NCBI GenBank assembly: GCA_021307315.1
Contig: JAJSPD010000027.1
Location: forward strand, 372,001-436,000
DNA: 64,000 nucleotides
Reading direction: 5' to 3'
Source: Bisporella sp. PMI_857
Taxonomy: Eukaryota > Ascomycota > Leotiomycetes > Helotiales > Helotiaceae
A program made the translations under genes and the position numbers. This document shows, piece by piece, positions 1,664 to 24,366 of the stretch. Below the pieces are notes generated by a model. The model did not search any database. It saw only the letters and a program-made list of their open reading frames with translations, and was not told where the DNA came from. Each line of letters opens with the position of its first letter. Within the stretch, counting starts at the first letter, position 1.

Positions 1664-3772
1664 TTATGCATGTTTGCTCCCGTTGGTTAAAACTGTGTCA
1701 GTTAACCCTTTAGTGCCCGTACATCGAATGCCCTTAACCTGAGCCCATTTAGGATCAATCTTGTCCGTTCCGATGTGGGGACTATCATCCAGCTCTGGGT
1801 TAGACATTTCCGGCACCCACCCCATCCCCAGGTAGCTGAAAGGGTTATCCTCTACTCCCGTCTCATTCTTTTTGTATCCAAATTCAAAATCCTCCCATCG
1901 AGGCGTCGCCATCACTCTTGCAAAGTGCAGTGTGATTCCTGGCCAAATGCTCTGGACTCTACCTGTCTTTGTGTTCTTATACCATGATGGGCAGTAGTCA
2001 GACCATACTGTATGCTTGTACCATTGCTGGCAGTGTTGAGCAAATTTATCTGTAACAGTTTGGCTGGGGCAGATAGACTTGATATTCGGTTGAAGCTGAA
2101 ACTTTTTGATCACTTGGCATACGTACATGGCAGATGCATTGGAAGCGCCAATGAGGGAGCCATTCGCGACAGGCCAATACGGGCCACTGCTGAAGAAGTA
2201 ATTTGGGAATCCAGGGCATGAGATCCCCATATAGGAGTCGGGATGGACTGCCCACTTATCGCGGAGATCGACGCCGCTCCGGCCGAGGATGGGGAATCTT
2301 GGCTTGTATGCAACGTCAAAACCTGTGCAAAAGTTAGTCATACGAGCAATAAGGGGAGATTGAATTCTACCGGTGGCGCATATCACAGCATCTACTTTCC
2401 TTTCAATGCCATCAGCACCCACGATGCCGTCTGAAGTGAGTCTTGTCACAGAGGTAAAGTGCACATCGATGTTCGGTTGTTGTATTGCTTTGATATATGG
2501 ATCACCAGGGGTCACTCTACGACATCCCAACTGGAAATCCGGGCTAAAGCCTTGCAATTTCGTTAGCTCGACCATATTTCGGTATCTCAATGGCGATATA
2601 CTTGCCTTGTAGAAGGCGCTTGTCCTTGATCAGTTTCGCCATACGATCTCGGAACCTGTGTTGCTGAAGGGTTTGCTCTTCGGTCTGTTTGTAGAATGCT
2701 GGAAAGAGGGCATTGAGATCCCGTTCAATTCCCTTGCCATGAGCAACCAAATCTTTTGCGTCTCTGAATTTCTTTCGATCTTCAAGGCTGTCTGGTACAT
2801 ATTGATCAGCTTTGGATGGCATAATTCTCTCCTTCGCTGAAAGCGACCTCACTCGACTTACAGGGTGTATTTTCGGCTGCTTCAGATCCTAGCCCCACGA
2901 ACCATACTCCAGTTCGCACAAAAACGTCCATGTGCTTAACATATGGCTAGAGAAAATTTCAGGGAAGCTTCATCTCACGAAGTATATCTGACGGCTTACC
3001 TGCATTCCAGGAACTGTTTGCACTGATGAGGCACCTCCACCAATTACGGCGACATTTTGGCCTTTCCATTGCTCCGCTTGATATTCAGGATCCCATCTTG
3101 CCGTATGTAGCAACTTGCCCCTGAAACTGTCAATTCCTTCAATTTCCGGCCACTTCCAATCGTTTTGGATTCCACAATTATTCAACAGGATATCAGCGAA
3201 ATCTTGGAACTCTCGAATTGTGCCGTCTTGGGTGGTTTCCCGACACTTGACTTTCCATTGGCCTTCCAATTCCATCCATTCGGCGTGGTACACGTCGGTG
3301 TTGAAGCGCATGTACTTTTTCAGATCGAAAACATCGGATACATTTTCGAAATATTCTGTGATCTCAGAAGCGCTGTGAAGCACGTTACCGCCGTTTGAGA
3401 AATGCTTTCATTTGCAGATATTGTTAGGCCGTATGCAGGGTTGGGCATAACTTACTAGCTGAAAAACCGAGGCCAGTCAGGGTTGGACGCCCATGAAAAC
3501 TGGTACACATGCGAAGGAACATCGCAAGCCACGTTGGGGTACCGATTTACCAACCACGTGCCCCCTAGTGAAGCATTTCTTTCATACAGCACGAGCTCAA
3601 AATTTGAACAATGCTTCTGGATGTGATACGCATTGTTGATACTATTCAGGCCTGTTCCGATGTTGATGACGCGAACTTTGCGATTAGTGGGATCCCCAAG
3701 CGTGATCTGAGGAATCTTATAGTTGGTCTCAAGAGAATCATAGAACGAAGTTGGTGGATAGTGTAAAGGCAT
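1664..3772 (-). CDS. Baeyer-Villiger-type flavin monooxygenase, 599 aa, six exons
   Basis: FAD- and NADPH-dependent monooxygenase expected to insert oxygen next to a ketone, giving an ester or lactone. Exons: 3772-3456, 3372-3000, 2946-2862, 2791-2606, 2550-2371, 2322-1664; they sum to 1800 nt, in frame. Visible motifs: an N-terminal Rossmann motif GTGLNS (about residues 39-44), [10 protein letters not shown] (70-79), the Baeyer-Villiger fingerprint [11 protein letters not shown] (F-x-G-x3-H-x3-W, 189-199), a second Rossmann motif IGGGASS, a CATGFD motif after intron 5, and a C-terminal SWYKN...GR...WPG block seen in fungal members of the moxY/stcW type. Oddities: the third glycine of the first Rossmann motif is Ser; intron 5 (2323-2370) is 48 nt and stop-free; intron 4 fits best as GC-AG (2551-2605), although a GT-AG alternative shifts the junction by a few residues. 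It is divergent from the reductase at 4091, with a shared 318-bp promoter. The family call is firm; the substrate is unknown. Confidence 0.9.
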
Positions 3773-4090
3773 TTTGGCATGTAGACTGTGGTCTGCATCA
3801 AGGACGACTTCATTAACTTTGGCCGCTTGGTTATTCTATGTATAGTACAGTATTCAATTGATTCCGCCGATGCGCCCCTGGCCATTCAGAACGGAATCTT
3901 GTTGCCCTTTCCGTGTTATCACAATAGAATAAAAATTTACACTTCGCGCGGCGGGGTGTGAGGTGACTTCGGAACTTCCGCAAGTTTCTCGCTTCAGAAC
4001 GGAGCGGATTCCTGCTTAACCACAAAGCAAATAGCCGACCCCTCCTATCTTTATTTTACATGAGAAGCCTCAAATTAAGATACGGCAACA
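3773..4090. promoter_or_regulatory. divergent promoter of the monooxygenase and the reductase
   Basis: 318 bp between two start codons. It contains the palindrome TCGGAACTTCCG at 3969-3980 (CGG-N5-CCG with matching inner AA/TT). Two further CGGA half-sites lie in AGAACGGA contexts near 3890 and 3990. Inverted CGG triplets are the usual target of Zn2Cys6 regulators, and two such regulators are encoded nearby. Confidence 0.6.
3969..3980. promoter_or_regulatory. palindromic CGG-N5-CCG box (pair 1)
   Basis: TCGGAACTTCCG: arms CGGAA and TTCCG around a single C. The same core recurs at 12791-12803, and a spaced version occurs at 8104-8118, each inside a divergent promoter of the same cluster. Inferred binding site of a cluster-specific Zn2Cys6 protein. 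Confidence 0.6.
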
Positions 4091-5140
4091 ATGGCAACTT
4101 CCAATAAAGCAATCTGGATATCTTCCGAAAACGAGCTCAGCCTCCAAACCATCACCGATCGTTATGATCCAGTCGGCGAGCAGATCCTCGTTGAGGTTGA
4201 ATACTCCGGAATCAATCCTGCCGACATCAAACATGGCCTGATCCTTGGCCTTAATGACTATCCTTCAGGGTATGAGTACTCCGGGAAAGTAATCAGGACT
4301 GGAGCTCAAGCCAAATTCTCTATCGGAGATCTGGTTCTGGGTCACAATCGAGTTAACAAGAAAAAGCCAATATATCACGGTAGCCACCAAAACTTCCTCA
4401 TTGGCGAGCATGCCATCTCCAAAGTCCCCCAAAACATGCCTATGCAAGATGCAGCCTGCATCTCCATAATGGTTCAGACAGCTGCCGACGCGCTGTTCAA
4501 TCAGCTTGAGTTTTCTGCCGGCACGGTATTGGGCGAGGAGCCAACCCGACGCCCGATTCTAATTTGGGGTGGGGCAACAAGTGTGGGAGTTGCAGCAATC
4601 CAACTTGCGAAAGCGGCAGGGCTCTCGCCGATTCTTACCACGGCCTCGAAGCATAATCACGATACGCTGAAGTCTCTGGGTGCCACGGCTTGTTTCGACT
4701 ATCGCGATGAAGACGTCGTGGAAAGGATCCAAAGCGCGATTCAAGATTTTGGGCAGCTACAAGGAATCTTTGACACGGTCGGTTCGAGTGTATCATCTAG
4801 TCTTTGCGAGAAGTGCGCGGGGGACAAAGGCATCACGCTGGCAAACACATCGCCACAGCCAGAGAAACCGCAGTGGAAAATGGTGCTCGCCACGAGAAAT
4901 CTGGATTTTCCGATGCCGCAGGCTGGAGGAAAGATCGGTATTATGAAGTCGAACCATCAGTGGCAAGACAAAATTGATAGAACCTTTGCCTGGTGCTTGA
5001 GCCACTATGGAATTGATCAACAATTTATTATCCCAAAAGTAAGGGTAGTTAGAAGTGCTGATGAGGGCATAAAAGCGATGAAATTTGTTGCTGAGGGGAA
5101 ATCAAGCATGGAAAAGGTGGCTATAAGGCATCCACTTTGA
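4091..5140 (+). CDS. zinc-independent MDR-family oxidoreductase (trans-enoyl-reductase / quinone reductase type), 349 aa
   Basis: Single-exon gene for a medium-chain dehydrogenase/reductase of the fungal ToxD-like class, expected to use NADPH to reduce a C=C bond conjugated to a carbonyl. The N-terminal catalytic fold holds the typical SGINPADIKHG and YEYSGKV segments (about residues 36-70). The nucleotide-binding motif GGATSVGVAAIQ lies at about 159-170, and the C-terminal segment with DEGIKAMKF and EGKSSMEKV is characteristic. The cysteine/histidine zinc ligands of alcohol dehydrogenases are not seen. The length matches the family (340-370 aa). In fungi this class works either as a trans-acting enoyl reductase beside a highly reducing PKS or as a stand-alone tailoring enzyme; no PKS is in the window. 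It is tail-to-tail with the regulator at 5258 (117 bp). Confidence 0.9.
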   Translation: MATSNKAIWISSENELSLQTITDRYDPVGEQILVEVEYSGINPADIKHGLILGLNDYPSGYEYSGKVIRTGAQAKFSIGDLVLGHNRVNKKKPIYHGSHQNFLIGEHAISKVPQNMPMQDAACISIMVQTAADALFNQLEFSAGTVLGEEPTRRPILIWGGATSVGVAAIQLAKAAGLSPILTTASKHNHDTLKSLGATACFDYRDEDVVERIQSAIQDFGQLQGIFDTVGSSVSSSLCEKCAGDKGITLANTSPQPEKPQWKMVLATRNLDFPMPQAGGKIGIMKSNHQWQDKIDRTFAWCLSHYGIDQQFIIPKVRVVRSADEGIKAMKFVAEGKSSMEKVAIRHPL

Positions 5141-5257
5141 TTTAGAGGAGTCAATGGATACGATTATTACGGGCTAAAAGCACTCTGTTGACAAAGCATT
5201 ACTTCCATCAGTGAGCGTTACATTTCGAATCTAGTCTTCCTCTGCCACTCGTATTGC

Positions 5258-7404
5258 TTATCCAAGATGCGAATACTTTCCTTCGACAGCCTGATTCGCC
5301 ATAGCTTGGTCATTCCAAAATTGATCTGACCAAACTTGATCTGACGAGGGCTGCCAAAAGCTATTCAACTCTGAATAATCTAGAGAAAAGTTTGGATAAG
5401 GATCTGAGCTCTGTATATTCTCATTTTCGAGCACATCCCTGGCTTCTTGGTTATCAAAATTGGAAGACGACTCTGGCGTAATAGTTGTTGTAAAGAGACG
5501 ATAGTCTGATGGCCAAGATACAAGACCTTTAACTCCATTGGCATTAGAAAAAAAGTGGCTAGCCTCGCCCGCGATTCCTTCATTTGAATCTGCTGTACTC
5601 GAAATTGGTAAGATTCCCTGGTGGATTTGCGCCTGTAAGCTGTCTTCCGTATATCGAAGTAATCCGAGTCTTAACTTGCCAAGAGAACCCTCCAGTATCC
5701 GAACCGTCTTTCCCAGGTTTTCTGAGGCAATGGGAGAGATTGAGATTGACTTCAGAGTTTCAAGACCTTTCGAATATTCAGATACGATTTTGCCAAATTG
5801 GTGGGGTGCACATCGAATGGCGAGATGCAGAACAACAAGTGCTGAGATAAGGAAGTACTTGAACTGCAGTCCCTGAAATTCGCGAACATGGGCGGAATCT
5901 TCTTGCGAACTGCTAAGGGCCGTGATATTATCGAGAGCCGCCTGAACAGCCAAAATAGCAGTTTTAGGGTGCTTCAGTATGTTCTTTGTAGAGTAAAGTG
6001 AGTGCTTGTAGAGGCTCAGGCGCATTTGATTGCCACGAATGCGGAAGAATAAGTTGGAATGACGCAAGCGTTTTATTTCGAATGTTGTGGAACCAATTGC
6101 TGTGATTGGAAAATGTCTATTAGTAGTGCGGGCCCACTGGTCAATTTGACGTCCTAGAGATGTACAAATATTCTCCTTGAGGTCGTCATTGTGAGAGCCA
6201 AATTTCGGAACCACTGGCATTATCTCACCTCCTAGACGTCCATAATTGACCATTGAAAGCATGTATGGGCCTAATTTGCTCTTCATGGAGGTTAGTCCTT
6301 GGCGAGTAATAGTAGAAAGATAGTGCTCCTCACCCGCTGCAGGATATTGAAATCTATGTCTCTGTCCTGTAAAGCAAACGGGAGGCTCGTCATGAAACTG
6401 TACCGACGATCGAGAATATAGACGCACCAGAACATTTTTGTTTCCCAACCAGCATAGGGCCTTCCAGCAGTGTCAATTGCTGGATCGTTCATTTGATGAA
6501 GTCCTAGCTCTAAGCAACACCTTGCTGCGGAAGCAATTTTTCTCCACGCCAGCTTCAAATTATCGCATATAAAATCGTATATGCTCTTCCGTTTTGTTAG
6601 TCCTGTTCCTATAATTGAAGACACAAAGCGCTAGATGGGGAATCCGAAAATTCAGAGCTGAGTGTTCAGTAACTATAGGGTGGAACATGAAAGCGAATGA
6701 CATACCAGCATAGTAGAAATGGCAATATCTTTAACATCTACTTCCAAGCTTCGTAGCCTCTCGAAGTTGTTTTCCTCTACGGTCGACACATATTTGTGTT
6801 TTAGCTCTTCTCCCAGTCTCATCTTAGTAGACATGGAGCAAGCGAGCAGAACTTTTAGAAAATCCACATTCCGGTCATCCTGATCGTCCCATCTCATGAC
6901 CAGCATATTCGTGTCATTATTGCCGTGCTTTTGCTGGCGGTTATAGAGGGTGTTTACAAGACTTTTGATCTCGAGTAGATCAATGAAAGGATAGAGCATC
7001 TCGATATCCTCGGTGAAACTCTCGATGAACTCAAGTACTTCAGAACTTGATAAAGGATGCAAAACATGGTGACTTGCGGCTTCATTCAAGACAGGCAACT
7101 TCCTGGCTGGGTCGGTATTTTTCTGTGTATTTGATGGCAGCGTCGTTAATTCCAGAGGGAGTATTCGATCGTAGATGCAATCGGCAGGCGCCCGCTTTGC
7201 GCACTGCCAACAAGGAACACCGCCGCTGCATTTTGTTTTCCGCTTTTTGCACCTTTCGCTACCAGAAAGAATCAGCAATGCTCAGAGAAGTGCGATAGAA
7301 ATTATTTCTCACCATGCCACAAGTACATACTGCTGCCGCTTTGCTGGCCGGGTTGCGCCAGTCTTACGGCAACCAGCTGCAGCTGGAGACGGATCTTTAC
7401 CCAT
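5258..7404 (-). CDS. Zn2Cys6 transcription factor with fungal-specific regulatory domain, 654 aa, four exons
   Basis: Probable pathway regulator acting in the nucleus. Exons: 7404-7313, 7258-6706, 6630-6334, 6280-5258 (1965 nt, in frame); introns of 54, 75 and 53 nt, all GT-AG with CTAAC/CTGA-like branch points. The zinc cluster is split by intron 1. Cysteines at 31, 34, 41, 47, 50 and 58 give C-x2-C-x6-C-x5-C-x2-C-x7-C, with the basic run KKRKTKC. The middle-homology region is recognisable around DRRYSFMTSLPFALQDRDID. The start ATG at 7404 is the first one in frame with the spliced cluster. Divergently transcribed from the MFS transporter, sharing a 1-kb promoter with the palindrome at 8104. 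It is the natural candidate for binding the TCGGAA-TTCCG boxes of this cluster; that is inference. Confidence 0.9.
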
Positions 7405-8429
7405 AAGGTTACCATTAATAGATTACAAGCCTTAACAATGCAAGCCCTGTAAGCCATGCAATGCATTACAATCGCCGCAGGTGTAGTGTACAAAGTCGAG
7501 GAGTGTCTACCAGAGAGAAGAGGCTGACTAAAATCTGGGGGCGATACTTAGTGTCCGTAGCGGGAGTCGCTGGATCGGGGATGGGGTGGGCGTCCACCTG
7601 AGCTGCCCCCACCCCTTCCGCAACGTGGAGTGCTCCGCTGCTCTTCCTCAAACGTAAATCACGTGTACGGGGTCCGCCTCCCTTTCTTTTCATTCTGGGC
7701 CTGCTCATCTCTCCATAAATAGTGTCCCATACATTACTGTTAGATTAATACTGTACAAGCTCCCGGTGAAAACAAGCGGTAGCTTCGGGTTTTTAGCTTC
7801 GCTGGCTAATTGTTAAATAATTTGTCAAGGTTGAAGTATTATTTACTTTCGCTTAAGAAGAGTATAGTGTTTTGGTGTCCACCGGCAGACGAGGTACTGA
7901 CCACAAAATCCGGGGTCCCGCATGAAGGCTCTCTCCCCCCACCACCCCCGTTGTTGGATGATGATTGGTGGCAGCAAACTATATAAATTTTGGGGGGATC
8001 ACGACTGCATGTGTTGGGGACCCAAATGCATGCAGCTTCATCATGGAATTTCCGAACCTATAATGCCAGGTACCAGTGGGAGTACCTAATGCACGAGCCA
8101 TCATCGGAAAGTTTTCCGTGGTGTCGAAGTGAAAGTGGGTCGTGGGATGGTACGTGGAGATGAGACATAGAGATGAGACATGGAAACCAACTTATATGAA
8201 AAGGGCAGATACTCGCTGTTCGACGATGTTCATTCCCATGGGAACCGGCCGGCCCCTTACCACCAGGAATCTAGTCCACTCGTCCAGACAGATAGCAAGT
8301 TACTTTGAATACTTTTCAACAAGATTTCTTTTCTCCTTTTTCCCTTCCCGAACCACGACTCATCTGCTTTTGACCCCTGCCAAGCAAACACCCAATTGAG
8401 TAGAACTGCGTTCCGGCAGACCTTTCAAT
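7405..8429. promoter_or_regulatory. divergent promoter of the regulator and the MFS transporter
   Basis: About 1 kb with no supported gene. It holds the palindrome CGGAAAGTTTTCCG at 8105-8118, a TATATAAA run at about 7980-7987, a CCGGCCGG palindrome near 8247, and a short direct repeat of AGATGAGACAT at about 8159-8180. An 85-codon frame at 8142-8399 has no protein-like content and lies in the presumed 5' untranslated region. Confidence 0.5.
8104..8118. promoter_or_regulatory. palindromic CGG-N8-CCG box (pair 2)
   Basis: TCGGAAAGTTTTCCG, perfect arms CGGAAA/TTTCCG around GT. Same half-site as the boxes at 3969 and 12791, but the triplets are three bases further apart, so it may bind the same regulator more weakly or a partner regulator. 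Confidence 0.5.
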
Positions 8430-9998
8430 ATGGCCATTAATTCTCATGTAAGGCATTCAAGTATTCAGATGTGTAGAGATAGGAGCAGAGTTACTGACGT
8501 TCTTGATCTCAGGAATGGCCACTGTGGTGGCGAATTATGATCTTAACCAACATTTGTGTCTACACGACCATGGGCAACTTTTTCGCCGCATGCGTTTCTC
8601 CGCTTCTCGTAGTCCTTGCCAAGCAGTTTCATGTGTCAACCACAGACACTTCACATCTTGCGATATATGCTGTTCTGACCATTGGTCTCTCCGTAAGCGT
8701 CATATTTTCTCATTGACATCAATCACACTCACCAGCACTAGAATCTCCTGGCAATTCCAATCTCGCAATATATCGGGAAAAGATATACAATCCTCCTCTC
8801 TATGATCCTTTTCATTGGTGTGAACATTTGGGGGGCTTATTGCACTACTTACAACGAGCTTCTCGCATCTAGAATAGTTGGAGGACTTGCTGCGGGCATA
8901 GTCGAGGCGCTGGGTCCTTTAATAATAGCAGAATGCTTTACTGAGGCGTATTTGGCATCTGCCATGGTGGTTTACACTCTTTCCCTCGGCGCTGGTGCTA
9001 GTCTGGGCCCTCTAGTTGCAGGCCTTGTCCACAATGGAACCCACACTTGGCCCTGGACTTTCGGAATTTCTGCATTCATCACAGCAGTCAATCTTTTATC
9101 CAGCATTCTTATGCTTCCAGAAACGACAGGATTGGAAAATTTCTACGAAGTAGCTCCGCCTACGAATGCCACAGTAACTGCCGATGCAGAAAAAGCAGTC
9201 ACTGATGAGATTGAGCAAGCTCGCGATGCAGTTTCCTCTGCCGAGTCTGAATCCTTATACGATCAATGGATCCATAGGTCATTCTTTTGGACGCTGCCGG
9301 ATATAAAGCCAGAAGCCAACTTTCTCGTTCTCTTCTTTCAGCCACTTTGGCTCCTCTGTTCACCCGCCGTCGTATTCACATCCGTTATCTTTGGCATCTT
9401 GATTGCTTTCACGGTCATTATATCAATTGTTTACGGTACAGTTCTGGGACAACCTCCAATACTCTGGACGCCACTCAAGATTGGATTACTCAACCTCTCT
9501 CCACTTATTGGACTTATAGTTGGTATGCCTACCGGTGGCTATCTTGCCGACGTCCTCTATCGACGGAGCGCCCGAAACCATGAGGGAATCGGTTTACGCG
9601 AGTCCCGAATTTTTGCCGCACTTCCAGGGGCCATCATTAGTCCTCTGGGACTTATTGTCATTGGCGTTTGCTTACAAAAACATCTCAGTTGGGTCGGACT
9701 TGCTTTTGGGTGGATGATGTCGAATATTGGCCTTACGGCTGTCGCAAGCGTTTTACTTACTTACTGCGTCGACTGCTATTCTTGGAAATCAGCTCACATC
9801 GGTGTTGTGGTGAATGTAATCAAAAATATGGTCAGTTTTGGGGTCAGTTATGCTGCTGTACCATGGTATTTGGATCTTGGGCCACAAAAGCAGTTCGGAA
9901 CGATGGCTGGCATCCTTTTATTTTTCTTGCTGCTTATCATCCCTCTACGAATTTACTCAACAAAGCTCAGGGAGCTCTCGCTGAAGTATATCGCATAA
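8430..9998 (+). CDS. major facilitator superfamily transporter, 484 aa, three exons
   Basis: Multi-pass plasma-membrane exporter of the drug:H+ antiporter type. Exons: 8430-8447 (only six codons), 8513-8692, 8742-9998; sum 1455 nt, in frame. Introns of 65 nt (branch TACTGAC, acceptor CTCAG) and 49 nt (GTAAGC...CACTAG). After EWPLWWR the hydrophobic segments start; the loop between helices 2 and 3 has the family signature (ISQYIGKRYT), and helices 4-5 carry SRIVGGLAAGIVEALGP and LGAGASLGPLVAG, the latter resembling motif C of antiporters. A central cytosolic loop of about 60 residues (after LPETTGLENF) separates the two six-helix halves. Head-to-head with the regulator at 7404. Likely exports the cluster product or a toxic substrate; no substrate can be inferred. 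Confidence 0.9.
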
Positions 9999-10635
9999 AG
10001 GAGGTCCGGCAATCGAGACAAATTGGCTTATTTCAGAGTTGTTTAGGTGTGCGTGGCTTAGAGTATGATCATTTGAGCTCAGTGCAACCAAGTAATTTCG
10101 ATGTGGAATGAACCGTTTTCACCTGCGCAAAACAAATGGCGCATGTTACCAGAGGTTCATGTGACGATCATCTCAAACAAAAGAAATCACTTAACCGATG
10201 GCTGAGTCCAAACATTCCTTTCTTTCTTTTACTTCATCTGGTCCCGAGTGTCTCCCTTCCAGTATCATTGCATAATCGAACACTTTCGGGTGACTCTATA
10301 TCGCTATCAAAGTATCTGATGAGTTCTTAGTCATATTCACATGATCTCACAAAGAGCATCAAGAAAAAATTATAGTCTCGCGAACATATTTTACCGTATC
10401 TTAAATTTCACTAAGTATTCTATTTCATTTGTGTTTCGAAAAGAGCTAAACCTTCGAATCAAAATTTTACTCACTCCGTCTCTCGCATAACTAAAGTTCT
10501 ACCAGAATTCGATTCCACCTCCAATGCTACATTAAGTACCTCACCAGGTCAGGCCACTTTTGCCGCCATTTTTTTACCATTGTAAACGACCTCGTGGCTG
10601 CTCACAGCTATGTCCTGAGGAGAAGACATCCAAGA
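9999..10635. other. convergent 3' intergenic region
   Basis: 637 bp between the stop codons of the transporter (+) and the NmrA-like gene (-). No gene is supported. The sequence is AT-rich at about 10330-10500, consistent with 3' untranslated regions. Confidence 0.5.
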
Positions 10636-11898
10636 TCATCTCTTCCATTCCGCTGCCAGCTTCACAACATAGTCTTCGTACTTGGCTGGCTCACGTCCCA
10701 AAAACTCGACTTGCAAACGATATTGTTCTTCAGACATTCCGAATCCAGTGAGGATAATACCCTCATATAGCTAGATACCCCTCGGTTAGCAGATCAAAAC
10801 GGCCATGTTGAGAGCTAAAAAATGGGAATCCCTACCAAAGTAAGATCCCTAGCCCAGACAGGCCCAAGATGCTTTCGAAACTCTCTCTCCAACGCATCTA
10901 GGCTTTCATTATTGCTCGGCACGGCTTGGATGGGGAAATCCAACGCATCGCTCCAAAGCTTTGCGCATTCTCCGCTCTGAAGAATCAATCAGTATCCATT
11001 TATGGCGCTCGAGATGTCTGCTCACAGTATACTGTTTTAATGTTCCAACATTGATCTTGATCTTATTCCACTTGCGACCTCGGTCAAGAAGGGCAATCAA
11101 CACCGCGTCCGCAATGTCAGCTACTGATACTCTGCTCGCTCCTTTTTTGCCAAAAGGCTCCACCCATTGTTTGCCGTGGAAGATTGCGTCCTTGACTTTG
11201 TTGTCGTTCTCAAAAAATAGTGTTGGTCCAATGACAGTATGGGTAAATGATGTGATATGTTGTAGTGCATTCTCAACAGGCGGTTTTATCTTTGTGTGAG
11301 GGCACATCCAACCAAGCAAATGGTCGGGCCTGCCAAGGAAGTCACCACAAGCGGAGAGATATCTATGAATAACAGATCAGTGTGGGACAATATGAAGTGA
11401 TGGCTGTGAAATATCGTATAGCAAGCCTAAAGAAAGACAGAGACGCGCCATAAGCGAATACCTTCATTTGGAAGTATTCGGAGATTGTACTGGCTGATAC
11501 CCATCAACGCAATTTAGAAATATGAATGGGAGAATGCAAAGCGAGTCAAAACCAAGCGAGAAATAAAATGGAAACTTTACGGGCACTTACACAACATGTT
11601 TGAGACTCTGCGATCGTTGCATAGCATTCAAGAAGTTGAATACTGTAAATATTTCATCGATGCCAAACAGGCAGAGGAAAACGGTATCGACCTCGTACAC
11701 CTTGAGCTGCGTTTCTACCCATTGCGGATCGGCGATGGGACCCTCCGCAATTGTCACAGCATCAGAATCTGCGAAACACTGTAATTTATCAGCACTGCTG
11801 GTTACGAGTACCAGGTGCACCGTGTTAGTTGCAAGCAGCTTTGGAATCAGCTCAGACCCTATGTTCCCGCTGGCTGCTGTGATCAGAACTTTTTGCAT
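10636..11898 (-). CDS. NmrA-like / atypical short-chain NAD(P)-binding protein, 306 aa, four exons
   Basis: Rossmann-fold protein of the NmrA/isoflavone-reductase-like group: either a redox-sensing regulator or a reductase. Exons: 11898-11591, 11362-11026, 10976-10836, 10770-10636 (921 nt, in frame); introns of 228, 49 and 65 nt. The N-terminus carries the dinucleotide motif VLITAASGNIGSELI (residues 4-18; the first glycine of the usual G-x2-G-x2-G is Ala). HTVIGPTLFFEN follows, then SVADIADAVLIALLD in the middle. The spliced C-terminal part includes KLWSDALDFPIQAVPS and EEQYRLQVEFLGREPAKYEDY, which is typical of these proteins. Shares a 1.2-kb divergent promoter with the alpha/beta hydrolase. 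The long first intron is unusual here and could hide another small exon. Confidence 0.85.
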
Positions 11899-12017
11899 GA
11901 TTGAGAAATCAGGTTTGACTATTGAAACTGTTTTAGAAACCTGTCCTTTATTATGAAAACGGCAAAGGGATCATGACAAAATAGTGCTGGTAACTAATGC
12001 GATATCCTGTGCGGAAT

Positions 12018-12621
12018 TAGTGTGGTTAATAATATACCATATATAGTGGTACTATAATATAGTGGACATAAATATAAGATTTTGAATATTACGCTATTCT
12101 CTACATTATATAATATCCTATAAGCGGACCGCCTCTTGATTGGCAAAACGAAATAGCGACAAAATCCGGCATTACATGCTACACCAACACATGTTTTACA
12201 TGAGCGACCATTAATGTGCTTGCTAATAACGCTATAAATACTGATACAATTTTTGGAATGCTGGATTATTTGATTCTACTATTTACAAGCTTTTTATTAG
12301 GGTAGCTATCAGCCTACTTTGTACTATACAGCTATCGGTATAAGCTGATTTGTGTTACAGGAGTAAATGTGAATCAGGACTACAAAGTTGACATCGGAAG
12401 TCCGGGCTTGGCAGGGTACATTTAAGGGTTGTAATAAACCTGTTATATATGTTTTGCAAATCGCGAATTTTCCCCTGTAACCATTGGTATTGTTATATCA
12501 TATTCTATAATATAATATAGCTATATAAGTGCGGTAGGCATAGAATTAAGCTATCTTATATTGACTATCTAGTCAATATAAGATTTTTGAGGCTACGTAT
12601 ATTTTAAATCATTAACCACAC
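12018..12621. mobile_element. 604-bp non-autonomous TIR element (MITE) with 10-bp target duplication
   Basis: The left end is TAGTGTGGTTAAT (12018-12030) and the right end is the inverted match ATTAACCACAC (12611-12621); the terminal repeats extend to about 14 bp with one mismatch. TGTGCGGAAT occurs directly outside both ends (12008-12017 and 12622-12631), a perfect 10-bp target-site duplication. The interior is AT-rich, has no coding capacity and contains a 14-bp perfect palindrome. A 9-10 bp duplication fits Mutator-like elements better than hAT (8 bp); the boundary can shift by 1-2 bases. No transposase is present. Confidence 0.75.
12553..12584. repeat. perfect 14-bp inverted repeat with 4-nt loop
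   Basis: ATCTTATATTGACT, loop ATCT, then AGTCAATATAAGAT. Located inside the inserted element near its right end; probably subterminal structure of the element rather than a terminator of a host gene. Confidence 0.7.
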
Positions 12622-12790
12622 TGTGCGGAATAGGAGCCCAAATGGGTTCGGAATGCTTTACTCGTTTTCTGTTAATTCCAGAATTCCCTTTTTGGCAAAG
12701 CAGGGATAAGTCTACTGATCCGTGCTATGAAGTGAGACATGGCTCGAGTGAAGCTCGGGCTTCAAAGGATGATCACAGAATGTGGGGTTG

Positions 12791-12803
12791 TCGGAATTTC
12801 CGA
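12791..12803. promoter_or_regulatory. palindromic CGG-N5-CCG box (pair 3)
   Basis: TCGGAATTTCCGA, extended to a 15-bp palindrome by the flanking G and C. Same core and spacing as the box at 3969-3980. It lies 283 bp upstream of the hydrolase start and outside the inserted element. Confidence 0.6.
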
Positions 12804-13085
12804 CGAAGCACAAATTCCGCAAGGGAATCCAATCTCTACTCTTGCATTTAGATGTCTCCACAGTAGGGATAATTTAAACTTTCTACTCGAACGGAACATG
12901 CATTAAGAGAGCGGATTGAGCGGCACCGCAACTTTAGAAAAGACATGTAAAGAATAGCGCCGTTTTTTAAATCGGACTTGTTGAAATCTCTACATATTCA
13001 CACCACGGCTAAATCTCGTTCTTTGAAATCCACCTACCTCAAAAATTTCACGGAACATCTTTTTAGAAGCATCTCGGACTAAGAA

Positions 13086-14377
13086 ATGGGTTCAGCCAGA
13101 CCTTACTTTTCCCTAGAATGGCTGGAAGTAAGCGCAACATATCTCGATATTCTTGAAGTTCATTGGAACAAGATTGCTGATAAGAATGATAATTTACAGC
13201 TCGAAAAGCATTTGGGATTTCGACCTGGATTGAAGGGTTCTCTGGAAGAGATCTTGGAAGCTGGAAAGAATCAGTTGCATCACAAACCCCCAGTCAATGA
13301 CCCTGCTGCGCCTGTGCAGTTCTGTATGTATTCACCATATTTCACAGACGTTATGGCCTTGTCAATATTTCCAATTCTCCCCTCTCGTAAAATTTAGGGT
13401 CAGAATTTGTCTTAGTACAAAGACGTCTACCATGCTGAAGATTCTCACTTGCATAGATGACGACCAGATTACTCCAAATATCAGAGTACGAGTCTACACT
13501 CCAAAATGTAAATCAAATTGCCCAATGCCCATTGGTGTGTTTGGCCACGGAGGTGGCTTCTGTGGTGGCGATCTGAACTCGGACGACAACACTGCGAGAT
13601 ACATGGCCGAACATCTGCCATGTATTGTCGTTAGCATAGACTATCGACTAGGTCCCAAGTATAAGTTTCCGACGATGCTCGATGATTTCGAGATTGGGTT
13701 CAACTGGGTAAGCTCAACCTGTCCACACTTGAAAGTTAGAACAGTCGTTAGTAGACTGTTTGCTCACACGAGTTAGGCTTATGATAATGCCGAGAAACTC
13801 AATGGCAACAGATGCAAAGTCTTCGCCTGGGGATGTTCAGCAGGGGGTACACTATCATGCGGCCTAGCGAAGAGATTTGTGGAGAAGGGACTAAAAGACA
13901 AACTTGCTGGCATCATGAACCTTGCTGGGGGAACGATGCACCCAGACAATATCCCTGACCATCTCAAGGACCAATACAAAGCAGTGTACGAGAATGCAGT
14001 GGACGTACCAATTGTCGATCGGCATGTCATGGACATTTTTAACAGTAAGACAACCCCCAAAGTCATTATGAAGTTTTGCTCGTGCTGATATAACATCTAT
14101 AGAAGCCATCGATGCAAATCCTCACGACTTGGATTACACCCCAGCCTTATTTGGAAACCTTAAAGAATTCCCTAAGGCATACTCGGTAGCGTGCGGTCTT
14201 GACCCGATGCGTGACGACGCTATAATCATGGATAGCGAATTGAAGAGGGCAGGTGTACTAACAAAGATAGATATATATCCCGGTTTGCCACACATTTTCT
14301 GGGTGTTTCCTCAACTGGCCAGTAGCCCAATTTTCCTCAAAAATATGATAGAAGGCGCAAAATTTATCCTTTCATAG
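13086..14377 (+). CDS. alpha/beta hydrolase (esterase/lipase, hormone-sensitive-lipase-like), 343 aa, four exons
   Basis: Serine hydrolase expected to cleave carboxylic esters. Exons: 13086-13323, 13457-13707, 13777-14044, 14103-14377; sum 1032 nt, in frame. All catalytic elements are present: oxyanion-hole motif HGGGF at about 110-114, nucleophile in GCSAGG (Ser184), acid in GLDP (Asp286) and base in LPHIFW (His316). The usual residue before the nucleophile (Asp/Gly/Glu) is Cys. Intron 1 (13324-13456) was placed by phase: a donor GTATGT and acceptor TGCATAG keep the frame into DDQITPNIRVRVYTP. Paired head-to-head with the NmrA-like gene. Next to a Baeyer-Villiger monooxygenase, an esterase is the classical second step (ester hydrolysis); that link is inference. 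Confidence 0.87.
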
Positions 14378-18160: not shown

Positions 18161-18270
18161 CTTCTGTTCCAAGTAGACTCAAGTTGTGTTTTGATAGCTG
18201 ATATGGCCATAGATTACCCACAAAAAGCCAAGCAGATGATGAAGATGACGGATGGGCTCGGGCCTTTTCT

Positions 18271-20040
18271 ATGATCGCGCTCTTATGGCCGGAGGACGAT
18301 ATTCCTGAAGAGGCTGATGAGAGTTGGGAAGACTGGGAAAGAAATGCCGAGGAAACTGAATGCATGGATTCTAAACAGCCAACCATCAAGTCACCTCTTA
18401 ATAGGGGATCTGAAGGAAGGAATTTGGGACGACCACAAAATGGCGACATGGGCGATACTTTGCAAAAACAACTTCTGCCACTTGAATTCTCGGGCAACCC
18501 GTGGAGCACAATTCTTCACTGGATACAACATTGCGACATCAATGACGCTGGTCACGAGACATGCCACGCCACTAGGCCTCTCCGTCATTTGCCGCTCATG
18601 AGGCTCATTGATGTGCAGAGGGGATGTATTGTTCCTGCCCAGCCCAATACCATATATGTGGCGTTGAGTTATGTGTGGGGCAGCCCCCCACAAAGCAGCC
18701 TCTTAAGTAGCAATTTTGTTCAATTACATGAAGATGATGGGTTCCGTAAGCACGGAATTAGGCTCTCAAAAACAATCTCCGACTCTATTGCACTTTGTCA
18801 GCGACTTGGATACCGATATCTCTGGGTAGATGCTTACTGCATCCTTCAAGACAATCCACATGACAAAGTTCTACAGCTCAATACAATGCGATATGTGTAT
18901 AGCAATGCCATTATTACTATAGTTGCTGCAAACGGAACTCACGCAAACTCTGGGTTAGGTGTTCCTGGTAGGGAGATTGCCCCCCTCGCTATGAAGGAAA
19001 ACTCGAACATTTGGGCATCATTCACACAAGCTTTGTCCAAAACAGTATGGGATACACGAGGGTGGACATTTCAGGAAAAAGTGCTTTCCCGGCGCTTGAT
19101 CCTGTTTTCCCATGATGGGCCATTCTTCCTTTGTGGAGCCAGGGCGTATAGTGAACATGGTTTTCAGCAACTACAAAACAACGTGGGGGGTTTTCTCTAC
19201 CGTCCTGGGTGCTTCTATAACATGCTTTCTGGGACCCAGTTGGAATTATACTTGGCGACTGTGCAGCATTATTCAGCGAGGAAGCTTACGGTAGAAACCG
19301 ACTTTGAGAATGCCATGAAAGGAGTTCTGAAAGCATTTGGCCATTCGATAGATGGAAGACCAAACAGCTTCTTCCAGGGTATCCCTACTACTTTCTTTGA
19401 TGACTTATTCTGCTGGAAGGTTGCAGAACATATACCCAAAGCACGTCGATGTGGTTTCCCAAGCTGGTCTTGGCAGGGATGGAGACAAACACCTATCTTT
19501 CCTCATCAAATCATGGATAGGGTTAATTTCAAACGTAAAAATGACCTCTGGGGTAGTCGTATTTTGGCCTACGACCGTGGCAACTTCAAAAAGATTACAA
19601 ATGTTGACTCTTTTGGCTTGAATACCTCTGGACCCAACCCGTTGATGCTGAGTTGGAGTGGCGCACCACTCGAAGTTGAAATGAAAAGCAGTGAAGATGT
19701 CGGATCCACCAATGGGCTGTTCCGCGTGTTCTTACCTGCCAACGGCCGAGTTGCGGGCCAAATCCAGCTCCATAAGCAATGGCGAGCCAGACAACCAGCA
19801 ATGATGGAATTTCTACCAATCTTCACTGAAGAGTTAAATGGGAAGGCCAAAATTAAGGTACTTATGTGCCTTGAACATTCTCACCAAGATTTAAGAGGGG
19901 TAGGAGGCCCATCGGACTCGTTTGAAAGGGTGCAGCTCATGGACTGCGACATTGAAGAGACTGACTGGATATTTAAAGAAAATACCATGGATTTTGGCGA
20001 CAAGCCTGTTTGTATGAAGCCCACTCGTTGGATCTATTAA
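18271..20040 (+). CDS. HET-domain (heterokaryon incompatibility-like) protein, 589 aa
   Basis: Intronless gene with the HET domain at about residues 125-290. Visible landmarks in order: YVALSYVWG, LSKTISDSIALCQRLGYRYLWVD, YCILQDN, MRYVYSNAIITIVAA, and WDTRGWTFQEKVLSRRLILF. This domain is fungal and is linked to self/non-self recognition cell death; many copies have no known trigger. The C-terminal 300 residues show no repeat domain (no WD40, ankyrin or NACHT). The same frame continues upstream of 18271 without a stop to about 18207, so an upstream exon or a later start (ATG at 18364) is possible. It sits just after a decayed gene and between two parts of the metabolic cluster. Confidence 0.88.
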   Translation: MIALLWPEDDIPEEADESWEDWERNAEETECMDSKQPTIKSPLNRGSEGRNLGRPQNGDMGDTLQKQLLPLEFSGNPWSTILHWIQHCDINDAGHETCHATRPLRHLPLMRLIDVQRGCIVPAQPNTIYVALSYVWGSPPQSSLLSSNFVQLHEDDGFRKHGIRLSKTISDSIALCQRLGYRYLWVDAYCILQDNPHDKVLQLNTMRYVYSNAIITIVAANGTHANSGLGVPGREIAPLAMKENSNIWASFTQALSKTVWDTRGWTFQEKVLSRRLILFSHDGPFFLCGARAYSEHGFQQLQNNVGGFLYRPGCFYNMLSGTQLELYLATVQHYSARKLTVETDFENAMKGVLKAFGHSIDGRPNSFFQGIPTTFFDDLFCWKVAEHIPKARRCGFPSWSWQGWRQTPIFPHQIMDRVNFKRKNDLWGSRILAYDRGNFKKITNVDSFGLNTSGPNPLMLSWSGAPLEVEMKSSEDVGSTNGLFRVFLPANGRVAGQIQLHKQWRARQPAMMEFLPIFTEELNGKAKIKVLMCLEHSHQDLRGVGGPSDSFERVQLMDCDIEETDWIFKENTMDFGDKPVCMKPTRWIY

Positions 20041-21486: not shown

Positions 21487-22777
21487 ATGACCACACCTAA
21501 TGGCGGCTCTAATGAGCCATGCAAAATCATTGTGAGACGAGCATTCAAGAAATCGCGCCGTGGTTGTCGAACTTGCAAAGCTCGAAAAGTCAAAGTTAGA
21601 CAATGATCCCTCGATTAGGTCTTATACGTCCTGACGTCGAATACTATAGTGCGACGAGAAACATCCTTTATGTGGCAATTGTCGGCGGCGCTTTGTGGGT
21701 ATCGACTCATGTGACTTTGAGGATTTTATTCTGTCTTCCACTGCAGCCAACGTGGTTGCTAAGCATTCAAGAGGCGAGACTCAGCAAAGTGCAATCCAAC
21801 CTCAAATCACAATTTCCCCGCGCAATGGAGTACAGTCCTCGGAGTCGAGAGTTCTTGAGTTGCGACTCATGCACCATTACTCGACTTTCACGTGCAATGA
21901 GCTGCCCAAAGCCCACAGTTCACAAGGGAAACAGGTTTGGTCGATAAACATCCCGCGTTTATCATTCTACTCTGATGATGCGCTTAATGCTTTACTTGCA
22001 ATCTCGGCACTGCATCTTTTTGCACTCTGCCATGAAGATGCATCCCTTGCTTATAGAGCAAAGCTCTACTTCGACCGTGCTGTCAAACAGCATCGAGTGG
22101 CATTGAGTAAAGCGAATTGTGACAACGCGGAGTCCTTGCTCGCAACCGCCATTTTGATCACCCATTACACCTGGCTGGCTGCGCACACTCATGTAGGAGA
22201 TCAACCGTATGAGATTCCTGTACAGACATACCACATGGCAAGAAAAATAAAATCTTTAATAGAGTATTTGTGGCCATTATTCAAAGATTCAGGGTATCTG
22301 TGGTACGTTGAACAGGACCAAGAGGAAGAACCAGACACAGAGGTGGGACATCCCTTTCTAAGCAGCGTTCAAGAAGATCTTGCACGACTGTCTGAATCCT
22401 TTAATGACCAGAATACGTCTATTACCGATAGAATGGTGTATATGCATGCCATTCAAGAGCTTTCCTCATTGTCCAAAGCAATCGTCTCTTCGAAATACGT
22501 ACAGAGGACGCAAAATCGACTGGCGACAATGCCGCTACGCCTTCCTCCGAGGTTCCTCGAGCTTGTGGAGCAGAAAGACCCACGGTCACTAGTGTTAATA
22601 GCAAGAAATATAGCCCTGTTAAAGCTGATAGATGATGTCTGGTGGTTGCATGGTATTGGGCAGTCTCAGAGAGTTGCAGAGTACTCTATCAACGGAATCA
22701 AGGCAATGGTTGCGAGCGAATGGATGTGGGCTATGGACTGGCCACTAAGCCTTATTTGCCACAAAAACAAAGCATAA
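21487..22777 (+). CDS. Zn2Cys6 transcription factor, 411 aa, two exons
   Basis: Second regulator of the region. Exons 21487-21594 and 21650-22777; the 55-nt intron (GTTAGA...CTATAG, branch CCTGACG) falls inside the zinc cluster, as in the first regulator. Cysteines at 27, 30, 37, 44, 47 and 57 give C-x2-C-x6-C-x6-C-x2-C-x9-C; the last spacing is one longer than usual. The rest resembles the fungal-specific domain of short regulators: LEKRLMHHYSTFT-like start (LRLMHHYSTF), SIPRLSFYSDDALNALLAISALHLF-type helix, and a final SEWMWAMDWPL block. The predicted end comes soon after that block; an undetected terminal exon is possible because protein-like sequence continues in another frame to about 22839. 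Tail-to-tail with the methyltransferase. Confidence 0.82.
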
Positions 22778-23006
22778 CGAACCTTCTCGAAGCGAAGACT
22801 TACTGGCTAAATGAATGCCCTCAGAATTGCCCGGATTAGAGCCTTCCATTCTCTGCGTACATGACGCAGTCCACGGAACAATGGCTACAATACAACAAAC
22901 CCCAAGTCACCATCCTAGAAAAAAGTCGATTCCAATAATGGACAAGAACACCTCTATAGCAGCTTTCTCGTATGAACATAACTGAACAAGTTTGCTATAT
23001 ACCTAC
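22778..23006. other. convergent 3' intergenic region
   Basis: 229 bp between the stops of the regulator (+) and the methyltransferase (-). Nothing is recognised. Confidence 0.5.
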
Positions 23007-24366
23007 TCACCTCCTTTTAACGGCTTCAATCAGACCTTCAGTATCGCCCTCTCTCTCCCAGATACGGACAAGATCGAGTCCGACCTCATTTAACAACCCA
23101 GTCCACTGCGCCTTGCTTCTCTCCATGCCACTAAGTAGAGCGATCATGTTAATATCGAGTAATGCTGGCCAAAGTGGGGTTCCCATTTCAGGGAGAACTG
23201 ATTCAAAAATCAAAAGTTTGGAGTACCCAGGTTTCATTGCATTTACAATATGCCTAAGGATCTCGAGGCTTTTGGGGTCGGAATAGTCGTGCAAGATGTA
23301 ACGAAGGTAGTAAGCTCGTGCACCTGGCCTGAAATCAGCGATGCTTGGTCACCCGGAATGGGAGTCGTATTCTGTACCCTTAATTGGCTGTGGGGTGAAG
23401 AAATCATGTTTCATACGAACAATATCTTCGCTGAGCTCCTTTATATCATCGATCACAGGTGGCAAATCTTGCACCACAAGTTTTCCTTGTGCATCGGGGA
23501 ACGCCCGCTTGATTGCTTCGAGGTCTTCGCCTCTATTACCACCAACATCGACCAGGAGAATGGGGTCTTGCCCATCTACCTTGTAGCCATCAAAGAGAAT
23601 TGATTTGGCATCTGCAAAAGCGAACCAATCCACGCGATTCATCTTCTGGCCTGCCATTAAGTCATTAAAGTACCTCATTTGATCCGGATGTTGGATGAGC
23701 CAGGGGAACATCTGAAGATCAGTCTGGAAAGTGTCTTGGAAGCAGCCCATTGGACCTTGGGGGTTCTTGTAAGCAGTTTTATGAAGAAACTCAGGCATGT
23801 TAACCACTGATTTTGCTGCTTCATCAAACCTGCCAGCCGCGTTAGCAAGAGTTCGAAAATTAATAGGTGGGCGAGGCGAGCTTGCATGAACTTGAATCCA
23901 CCCTTAATAGCCTGAACCGTGAGAATTCGGGATATTGGATTGGCGTTGTAGGTTTCAATCCCGACCTCATCCACAATTTTCATGGCGGTTAGCGGTCTCA
24001 AGACACGAACTAGATGAGTGATACTTAGTTAGGGTTTGATGTAGTTTAGTCGAAAGGAGAAAACGAACCGATGAGCTGCTTGTCGGCGTTGGTAGCATTG
24101 GCTAGGTCTGCCGATGTCGTTGGACCATTACTACTCGAAATTGCATCAATCACTCCCATCTCCAGCGCAGTCCTTACACTTGCACTCTTATGAGGTTCCA
24201 TTATCATGCGCCAAATGAACTCCGGTGGTGACTCCAGAGATGTAGCATAGTTGTTAAGCATTCCTTGAAATTCTTTGCGAACAATATCGTTTCCCTGGAC
24301 TTCCTTCTGCAGTATCTTCAAAGTATTCTCGAAGTCGAGTAATCGCTCATGCAAAGAGGCAGACAT
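23007..24366 (-). CDS. S-adenosylmethionine-dependent O-methyltransferase (fungal natural-product type), 396 aa, four exons
   Basis: Methylates a hydroxyl on a small aromatic or polyketide-like molecule. Exons: 24366-24069, 24009-23886, 23829-23378, 23323-23007 (1191 nt, in frame). An N-terminal dimerisation helix region comes first; a winged-helix-like part with ALEMGVIDAISS follows, then the SAM-binding motif VDVGGNRG (about 234-241), KLVVQDLPPVI, and the catalytic-base segment YYLRYILHDYSD (His at about 303). Intron 1 has donor GTTCGT; intron 2 can be read as GC-AG (23830-23885, branch GCTAAC) or as a weak GT-AG six bases longer, both in frame. A TATATAAA sequence lies about 130 bp upstream on the minus strand (near 24499-24507). 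Typical of secondary-metabolite clusters. Confidence 0.9.

What the first reader, a model, noticed from the sequence alone, without database searches (positions are those of the whole stretch)
3969..12803. Same TCGGAA/TTCCG palindrome in three divergent promoters of one cluster
The boxes at 3969-3980 (TCGGAACTTCCG) and 12791-12803 (TCGGAATTTCCGA) share core and spacing; the one at 8104-8118 (TCGGAAAGTTTTCCG) has the same half-sites with three extra central bases. Each lies in the shared promoter of a head-to-head pair: monooxygenase/reductase, regulator/transporter, NmrA-like/hydrolase. This suggests a six-gene regulon controlled by the Zn2Cys6 protein encoded at 5258-7404 (or its neighbour at 21487). 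I did not see the motif upstream of the methyltransferase or GST.
Basis: partly seen in the sequence, partly recalled or inferred. Interest (0 to 1): 0.78.

Follow-up and report, generated by a model that had tools for sequence, protein, structure and literature searches.

The report
Local regulator's shared promoter binding sites
In a small fungal gene cluster that probably oxidises and splits a ketone-like compound, the three shared promoters carry an unusual excess of the short DNA word CGGAA, and the same word is in excess near related regulator genes elsewhere in the genome, so it is probably the landing site of the cluster's own zinc-cluster regulator.

Summary
The three boxes are real, each in the shared promoter of a head-to-head pair; any 5-bp inverted repeat common to these promoters arose in 1 of 4000 shuffles. 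But the palindrome is below its reversed control genome-wide (44, 19, 44, 45 sites for spacers 1-4 against 67, 76, 73, 72), and the 8104 box is spaced differently.

The stronger signal is the half-site: CGGAA/TTCCG occurs 19 times in the three promoters, 4.3 expected, rank 1 of 499 5-mers. It is normal in other intergenic DNA (11 vs 11.6; 82 vs 81.1) and upstream of 12 other Zn2Cys6 genes (35 vs 32.6). It is in excess again beside the closest genomic relatives of the regulator at 5258-7404, although two of those four loci were examined because they hold palindromes.

Best reading: this regulator and its close paralogues share a CGGAA half-site and act locally; half-site arrangement varies. The regulator at 21487 is not implicated. 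Binding and regulation are inferred; no related species' DNA was available. New member of a known kind.

The parts
3969..3980 (.). Box 1, TCGGAACTTCCG: inverted CGGAA half-sites, spacer 1 (CGG-N5-CCG)
3892..3913 (.). Second inverted pair in the same promoter, CGGAA-N12-TTCCG (spacer 11 bp longer than box 1); the same spacing recurs in the paralogous C282 locus; 46 such sites genome-wide, so weak on its own
8104..8118 (.). Box 2, TCGGAAAGTTTTCCG: inverted CGGAA half-sites, spacer 4 (CGG-N8-CCG)
12791..12803 (.). Box 3, TCGGAATTTCCGA: inverted CGGAA half-sites, spacer 1; its 12-bp core TCGGAATTTCCG is at five places in the genome, one of them upstream of an amino-acid permease beside a TF1 paralogue (C46:476847-476858)
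3773..4090 (.). Divergent promoter BVMO/ER; 5 CGGAA half-sites, 0.73 expected
7405..8429 (.). Divergent promoter TF1/MFS; 5 half-sites, 1.99 expected (weakest of the three, 0.038 of shuffles reach it)
11899..13085 (.). Divergent promoter NmrA-like/hydrolase; 9 half-sites, 1.64 expected; 6 within 300 bp, a density seen in 0 of 16221 (overlapping) background windows
1664..3772 (-). Flavin monooxygenase of the StcW/MoxY-like Baeyer-Villiger type (PF00743; FRGKLLHTARWD); listed relatives 46-55% identical
   Evidence: exon ends partly set by eye
4091..5140 (+). Zinc-type alcohol dehydrogenase/enoyl reductase (PF08240, PF00107), single exon
5258..7404 (-). TF1: Zn2Cys6 regulator (PF00172 and PF04082); CERCKKRKTKCSGGVPCWQCAKRAPADC read across the first intron by eye; candidate binder of the boxes
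8430..9998 (+). MFS transporter (PF07690)
10636..11898 (-). NAD(P)-binding reductase (PF13460; NmrA PF05368 just below cut-off)
13086..14377 (+). Alpha/beta hydrolase (PF07859); 13128-13199 is an extra intron according to database protein P0136

Best explanation
The boxes are part of a denser set of CGGAA half-sites in three shared promoters, recognised by the cluster's own Zn2Cys6 protein TF1 (5258-7404). TF1 would bind as a dimer, best on the one-base-spaced inverted pairs (CGG-N5-CCG) at 3969 and 12791, more loosely on the differently spaced pair at 8104 and on scattered half-sites, and switch on BVMO, reductase, transporter, NAD(P)-reductase and hydrolase together while controlling its own gene. 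The gene set suggests uptake of a ketone-bearing compound, Baeyer-Villiger oxidation to an ester or lactone, hydrolysis, and reduction of side products. Close paralogues of TF1 keep the CGGAA half-site and act as local regulators of other loci. Shown: the sites, their excess, its presence at loci of close TF1 relatives and absence in the controls, the gene families. Inferred: binding, dimer geometry, activation rather than repression, inducer and substrate.
For: CGGAA is the most over-represented 5-mer of 499 in the three promoters (19 vs 4.3) and of 456 in two divergent promoters of the C282 locus (10 vs 2.3), a locus reached through TF1 and BVMO homology rather than through the motif. It is also rank 1 of 495 in the C46 permease and C216 homogentisate-dioxygenase promoters (12 vs 3.3), which were picked because they hold a palindrome. 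Controls are flat: window intergenics 11 vs 11.6, rank 285 of 512; 58.6 kb of non-ORF DNA from 19 loci 82 vs 81.1; 12 other Zn2Cys6 upstream regions 35 vs 32.6. The same 1.6-kb upstream stretch of the five TF1-family genes: 27 vs 12.7. Rate 7.1/kb in the seven promoters vs 1.4/kb in background, binomial p 1e-8 even without the 10 palindromic half-sites. Spacer-1-4 palindromes lie within 6.5 kb of the zinc domain in 2 of 4 paralogues against 6 of 147 other domains (Fisher p 0.014). The basic stretch C-K-K/R-R-K-x-K-C is shared by TF1 and the C46, C216 and C282 proteins.
Against: No binding or expression data, and no DNA of a related species to test conservation. Spacing is inconsistent (1, 4, 3, 12), unusual for one Zn2Cys6 dimer. 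If four upstream regions of C282 are counted the excess is weaker (13 vs 5.5, p 0.005). The C46 regulator's own upstream shows none (1 vs 2.2), and C282's and C216's own upstream stretches are not significant alone (5 vs 2.7; 6 vs 2.7). The C253 zinc domain reads CKTKKVKC, off the shared basic stretch. The C282 and C253 loci have no spacer-1-4 palindrome. Two further N12 palindromes of contig C282 lie inside coding sequence. The monooxygenase has 86 matches in this genome, so one beside a TF1 relative may in part be chance. Of four more distant relatives one (C227) shows a nominal excess (7 vs 3.1, p 0.04). I chose promoters after seeing some half-site positions, and start codons there were set by eye.
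Confidence: 0.64

Rival explanations
1. The half-sites are bound by a different zinc-cluster protein, unlinked or the one at 21487, and TF1 merely sits in the regulated cluster.
For: Many Zn2Cys6 genes exist in this genome (150 domains scored of 406 candidates), and CGG triplets are generic to the class (PMC9000951 passages).
Against: The excess follows the TF1 subfamily to other contigs and is absent upstream of 12 other Zn2Cys6 genes and in the intergenic DNA before the 21487 gene.
Confidence: 0.18
2. The palindromes are a chance coincidence, chosen by eye out of many possible short repeats.
For: The palindrome is not enriched in the genome; 17 other 5-bp half-sites, some of them simple repeats, also have three or more inverted repeats in the window.
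Against: 1 of 4000 shuffles gives any half-site shared by the three promoters; separate excess in C282; flat controls.
Confidence: 0.1
3. CGGAA is read as single or tandem half-sites; the inverted arrangement is incidental. (Compatible with TF1 as the binder.)
For: In C282 direct pairs (gaps 2, 5, 12, 17, 20, 24) outnumber the single inverted pair (gap 12), with no short palindrome; 10 of the 41 half-sites in the seven promoters are in spacer-1-4 palindromes, 31 are not.
Against: One-base-spaced palindromes occur three times in family promoters (3970, 12792, C46:476848) against 44 in 55.6 Mb, though the C46 promoter was picked for its palindrome.
Confidence: 0.3

Closest known systems
Otf1p and Gtf1p of Candida parapsilosis, zinc-cluster regulators encoded inside the 3-oxoadipate and gentisate metabolic gene clusters (PMC8929692, passages seen)
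   Same: Regulator gene inside a catabolic cluster, with predicted sites in the promoters of that cluster
   Different: Gel shifts with extracts of wild type and deletion strains back them; another pathway; the letters of their motifs were not in the passages seen
AtrR of Aspergillus fumigatus, CGG-N12-CCG (PMC6414702, passages seen)
   Same: Zn2Cys6 protein on inverted CGG triplets
   Different: 12 bp between triplets against 5 or 8 here; close to 900 promoters against a local set
AmyR of Aspergillus, CGG-N8-CGG or CGGAAATTTAA (PMC5468973 and PMC12941744, passages seen)
   Same: One reported site begins with CGGAAATT
   Different: Direct repeat, starch regulon; relation to TF1 was not tested
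Hal9/Tbs1 and Oaf1/Pip2 of budding yeast, zinc-cluster paralogues with differing spacing or orientation (PMC9000951, passages seen)
   Same: Paralogues share CGG recognition while spacing or orientation changes, as proposed for the TF1 family
   Different: Whole-genome duplicates measured by genome-wide binding; here only inferred from promoters

Membership tests
Gal4-type Zn2Cys6 regulators | Six-cysteine zinc cluster C-x2-C-x6-C-x5-12-C-x2-C-x6-9-C (spacing range recalled) | tested here: met
   CERCKKRKTKCSGGVPCWQCAKRAPADC; PF00172 at 33.3 bits, cut-off 21
Gal4-type Zn2Cys6 regulators | Fungal_trans middle domain | tested here: met
   PF04082 at 40.7 bits, cut-off 23
Gal4-type Zn2Cys6 regulators | Binds spaced CGG triplets | not testable with these tools
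   only promoter statistics
Cluster-resident pathway regulator (Otf1/Gtf1-like in logic) | Regulator gene inside the cluster, shared motif in cluster promoters | tested here: met
Cluster-resident pathway regulator (Otf1/Gtf1-like in logic) | Deletion abolishes induction of the cluster | not testable with these tools
   no expression data
Type I Baeyer-Villiger monooxygenase | Fingerprint FxGxxxHxxxW[PD] (recalled) and FMO-like fold | tested here: met
   FRGKLLHTARWD read in the model by eye; PF00743 42.6 bits, cut-off 22
NmrA family | PF05368 over its gathering score | tested here: not met
   26.2 against 27 bits; PF13460 fits better
AflR-type site | TCG-N5-CGA (recalled) | tested here: not met
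   by eye: box 3 reads TCG-N7-CGA; boxes 1 and 2 do not end in CGA

The most novel reading that the evidence does not exclude
A subfamily of fungal Zn2Cys6 regulators keeps one half-site, CGGAA, while half-site arrangement diversifies from locus to locus (inverted spacer 1, 3, 4 or 12, or tandem), letting paralogous local regulators run separate catabolic loci (Baeyer-Villiger clusters, homogentisate dioxygenase, an amino-acid permease) in one genome; spacers 1 and 12 differ by 11 bp, about one helical turn.
Probability: 0.3. Interest if true: 0.5.

Novelty: new member of a known kind. Interest (0 to 1): 0.36.

Why it matters
As far as I know most fungal zinc-cluster regulators have no established DNA site; this gives a specific, cheap prediction for a small subfamily of them from one genome, and a starting point for the control of two Baeyer-Villiger gene sets. 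It also suggests a way to find such sites: half-site excess beside paralogous regulators is visible where the exact palindrome, at background in the genome, is not.

Tried and rejected
Genome-wide palindrome as a global regulon: rejected, counts are below the reversed control for spacers 1-4 and the 20 sites examined elsewhere show no promoter preference.

Regulator at 21487 as the binder: not supported, for lack of half-sites in the intergenic DNA before it and upstream of the methyltransferase.

Duplicated promoter DNA as the cause of shared half-sites: blastn among the seven promoters found only one 14-bp match.

Three CGGAA-N12-TTCCG sites on C282 as a second cluster of sites: two lie in coding sequence, so dropped. 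The palindrome at C216:237945 also lies in a coding frame.

C216 regulator as HmgR: considered because of the neighbouring homogentisate dioxygenase; HmgR is described as 40% identical to Aro80p (PMC3203155, section 21), and the C216 zinc domain does not look like Aro80p's as I recall it; not tested. A 2026 review lists HmgR's site as N/A (PMC12941744 passages); the Penicillium marneffei paper speaks of a predicted HmgR site whose letters I did not see (PMC4374905 passages).

Literature: the four exact 11-mers and two 13-mers (7 papers, none about a fungal regulator by title); Zn2Cys6 with TCGGAA and palindrom (none); Zn2Cys6 with CGGAA and fungi (6 papers, passages of 3 seen); CGGN5CCG and CGGN8CCG forms (3 papers, listing only); HmgR (13 papers, passages of 3 seen, one of them also); Baeyer-Villiger clusters (112 papers, 15 listed, listing only); zinc cluster with TTCCG (2, listing only); paralogues and spacing (26 papers, 12 listed, passages of 2 seen). 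None showed this motif for this family; subscription papers and preprints are not in that library.

Rows left out: the 12 control regulators are 12 of the first 14 rows. C227 was left out as a distant TF1 relative (fetched later, 7 vs 3.1) and C200:94316 was not fetched (it has a spacer-4 palindrome 206 bp from its zinc domain). Adding C227 to the controls would make 42 vs about 35.7. Of seven distant TF1 relatives (C218, C280, C227, C113, C112, C222, C276), four were fetched.

Full report
What was reported and what is there. The window is a stretch of a 55.6-Mb, 284-contig fungal genome (G000:C189:372001-436000). CGGAAN{1,6}TTCCG occurs in it exactly three times, at the reported places. The gene models put each box in the gap of a head-to-head pair: BVMO/ER (3773-4090), TF1/MFS (7405-8429), NAD(P)-reductase/hydrolase (11899-13085). 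The hydrolase model, apart from a 24-residue stretch that the database model treats as intron, reads the same by eye as P0136 from Bisporella sp. PMI_857, so the genome is probably that fungus or one very close.

Is it more than chance? Shuffling the three promoters 4000 times gave one set sharing any 5-bp inverted repeat with spacer 0-6, and none with CGG or CCG in the half-site. Genome-wide, spacers 1, 2, 3 and 4 give 44, 19, 44 and 45 sites (reversed control pattern 67, 76, 73, 72). These 152 sites form one triple within 15 kb, this one (expected 0.044 for its 8.8-kb span); five other pairs lie within 8.9 kb. Of the 42 spacer-1 sites outside the window, 20 were fetched; 13 of 20 lie in stop-free frames of at least 120 aa, where 52% of the bases lie. 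So the palindrome itself marks no general promoter class.

The half-site. Counting CGGAA/TTCCG alone, the three promoters hold 19 against 4.3 expected, the top 5-mer of 499; TF1/MFS contributes least (5 vs 2.0). Four other intergenic stretches of the window have 11 against 11.6 (rank 285 of 512); non-ORF DNA of 19 other loci has 82 against 81.1 in 58.6 kb, sites masked.

Following the regulator. A search of the own genome with TF1 gave as closest relatives C46, C216, C282 (E 4.5e-18 to 4.5e-17) and C253 (3.4e-10). A search with the monooxygenase gave 86 matches, among them one on C282, head to head with the TF1 relative there; that locus also has a hydrolase, a short-chain dehydrogenase and an MFS transporter, and, by eye, HMG-CoA-lyase-like and biotin-carboxylase-like genes, which suggests a catabolic set. 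The C282 TF/BVMO and hydrolase/SDR promoters hold 10 half-sites against 2.3, again the top 5-mer, of 456. With two further upstream regions of that locus included it is 13 against 5.5 (p 0.005). On C46 the core TCGGAATTTCCG lies upstream of an amino-acid permease (PF13520) next to the TF1 relative; on C216 CGGAAAAATTCCG lies upstream of a homogentisate dioxygenase (PF20510/PF04209). These two promoters were chosen because of their palindromes.

Controls by regulator. Twelve other Zn2Cys6 upstream regions (12 of the first 14 rows; C227 and C200 left out) have 35 against 32.6; the five TF1-family ones 27 against 12.7, of which C46 shows none in excess (1 vs 2.2) and C253 most (9 vs 2.6). Four of seven more distant relatives were fetched and have 4, 2, 7 and 2 against 3.1, 2.4, 3.1 and 2.6. 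In real sequence of 31 control loci, 5 or more half-sites in 300 bp occur in 0.13% of 16221 overlapping windows; 4 of the 7 family promoters contain such a window.

Palindromes near regulators. Of 150 scored Zn2Cys6 domains (of 406 candidates) 8 have a spacer-1-4 palindrome within 6.5 kb; two of these are the C46 and C216 relatives. Taking C282, which is not among the 150, and C253 with them: family 2 of 4 against others 6 of 147 (Fisher p 0.014). This is supportive only.

Arrangement. Inverted spacer 1 occurs at 3970, 12792 and C46:476848; spacer 4 at 8105; spacer 3 at C216:228906; inverted spacer 12 at 3892 and C282:24276; direct spacing 12 at C282:24181/24198 and 12798/12815. Spacers 1 and 12 differ by 11 bp. 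With some 20 close pairs this recurrence is marginal, and two further N12 sites on C282 proved to be in coding sequence.

How it most likely works. TF1 (Zn2Cys6 plus Fungal_trans) binds CGGAA half-sites in its own cluster as a dimer and switches on the six genes, its own included. The enzyme set fits ketone oxidation to an ester and hydrolysis. Zinc-cluster proteins are described as dimers on two spaced CGG triplets whose spacing and orientation set specificity, and some paralogues as differing in that spacing or orientation (PMC9000951 passages); the pattern here would fit such divergence. Binding, activation, inducer and substrate are inferred.

Against known systems. In logic this is a cluster-resident zinc-cluster regulator, as reported for Otf1p and Gtf1p (PMC8929692 passages). 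Sites seen in the passages read (AtrR CGG-N12-CCG, RhaR CGG-X11-CCG, LeuB CCG-X4-CGG, InuR CGG-X8-CGG, AmyR) differ. The searches showed no report of this motif for this family. New member of a known kind, with a testable prediction for a subfamily.

Noticed in passing
G000:C282:12501-31122 (L051, L032, L033): A second Baeyer-Villiger locus with a TF1 relative, hydrolase, SDR and MFS, plus (by eye) HMG-CoA-lyase-like and biotin-carboxylase-like genes, looking like a terpenoid or branched-chain degradation cluster.
   Followed up: partly
G000:C253:31001-40500 (L034): A TF1 relative with 9 CGGAA half-sites in the 1.6 kb that ends at its zinc domain, next to P450-like pieces and a carotenoid-oxygenase-like gene (by eye).
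   Followed up: partly
G000 genome-wide: CGGAA-N2-TTCCG is less than half as frequent (19) as spacers 1, 3, 4 and 12 (44-46), while the reversed controls are similar (67-76); unexplained.
   Followed up: no
window 18202-20037: HET-domain gene (PF06985) between the cluster and the second Zn2Cys6 gene, which may mark the cluster's right border.
   Followed up: no
window 21487-24366: Second Zn2Cys6 gene with an O-methyltransferase as convergent neighbour; no CGGAA excess, so probably a separate unit.
   Followed up: partly
database proteins P0127 and P0140: Aspergillus terreus relatives of the monooxygenase and of the hydrolase are each listed on a contig of 1423202 bp, hinting that the pair is also linked there.
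   Followed up: no
G000:C282:31958-35917 (L033): Retrotransposon-like frames beside the paralogous cluster (by eye).
   Followed up: no
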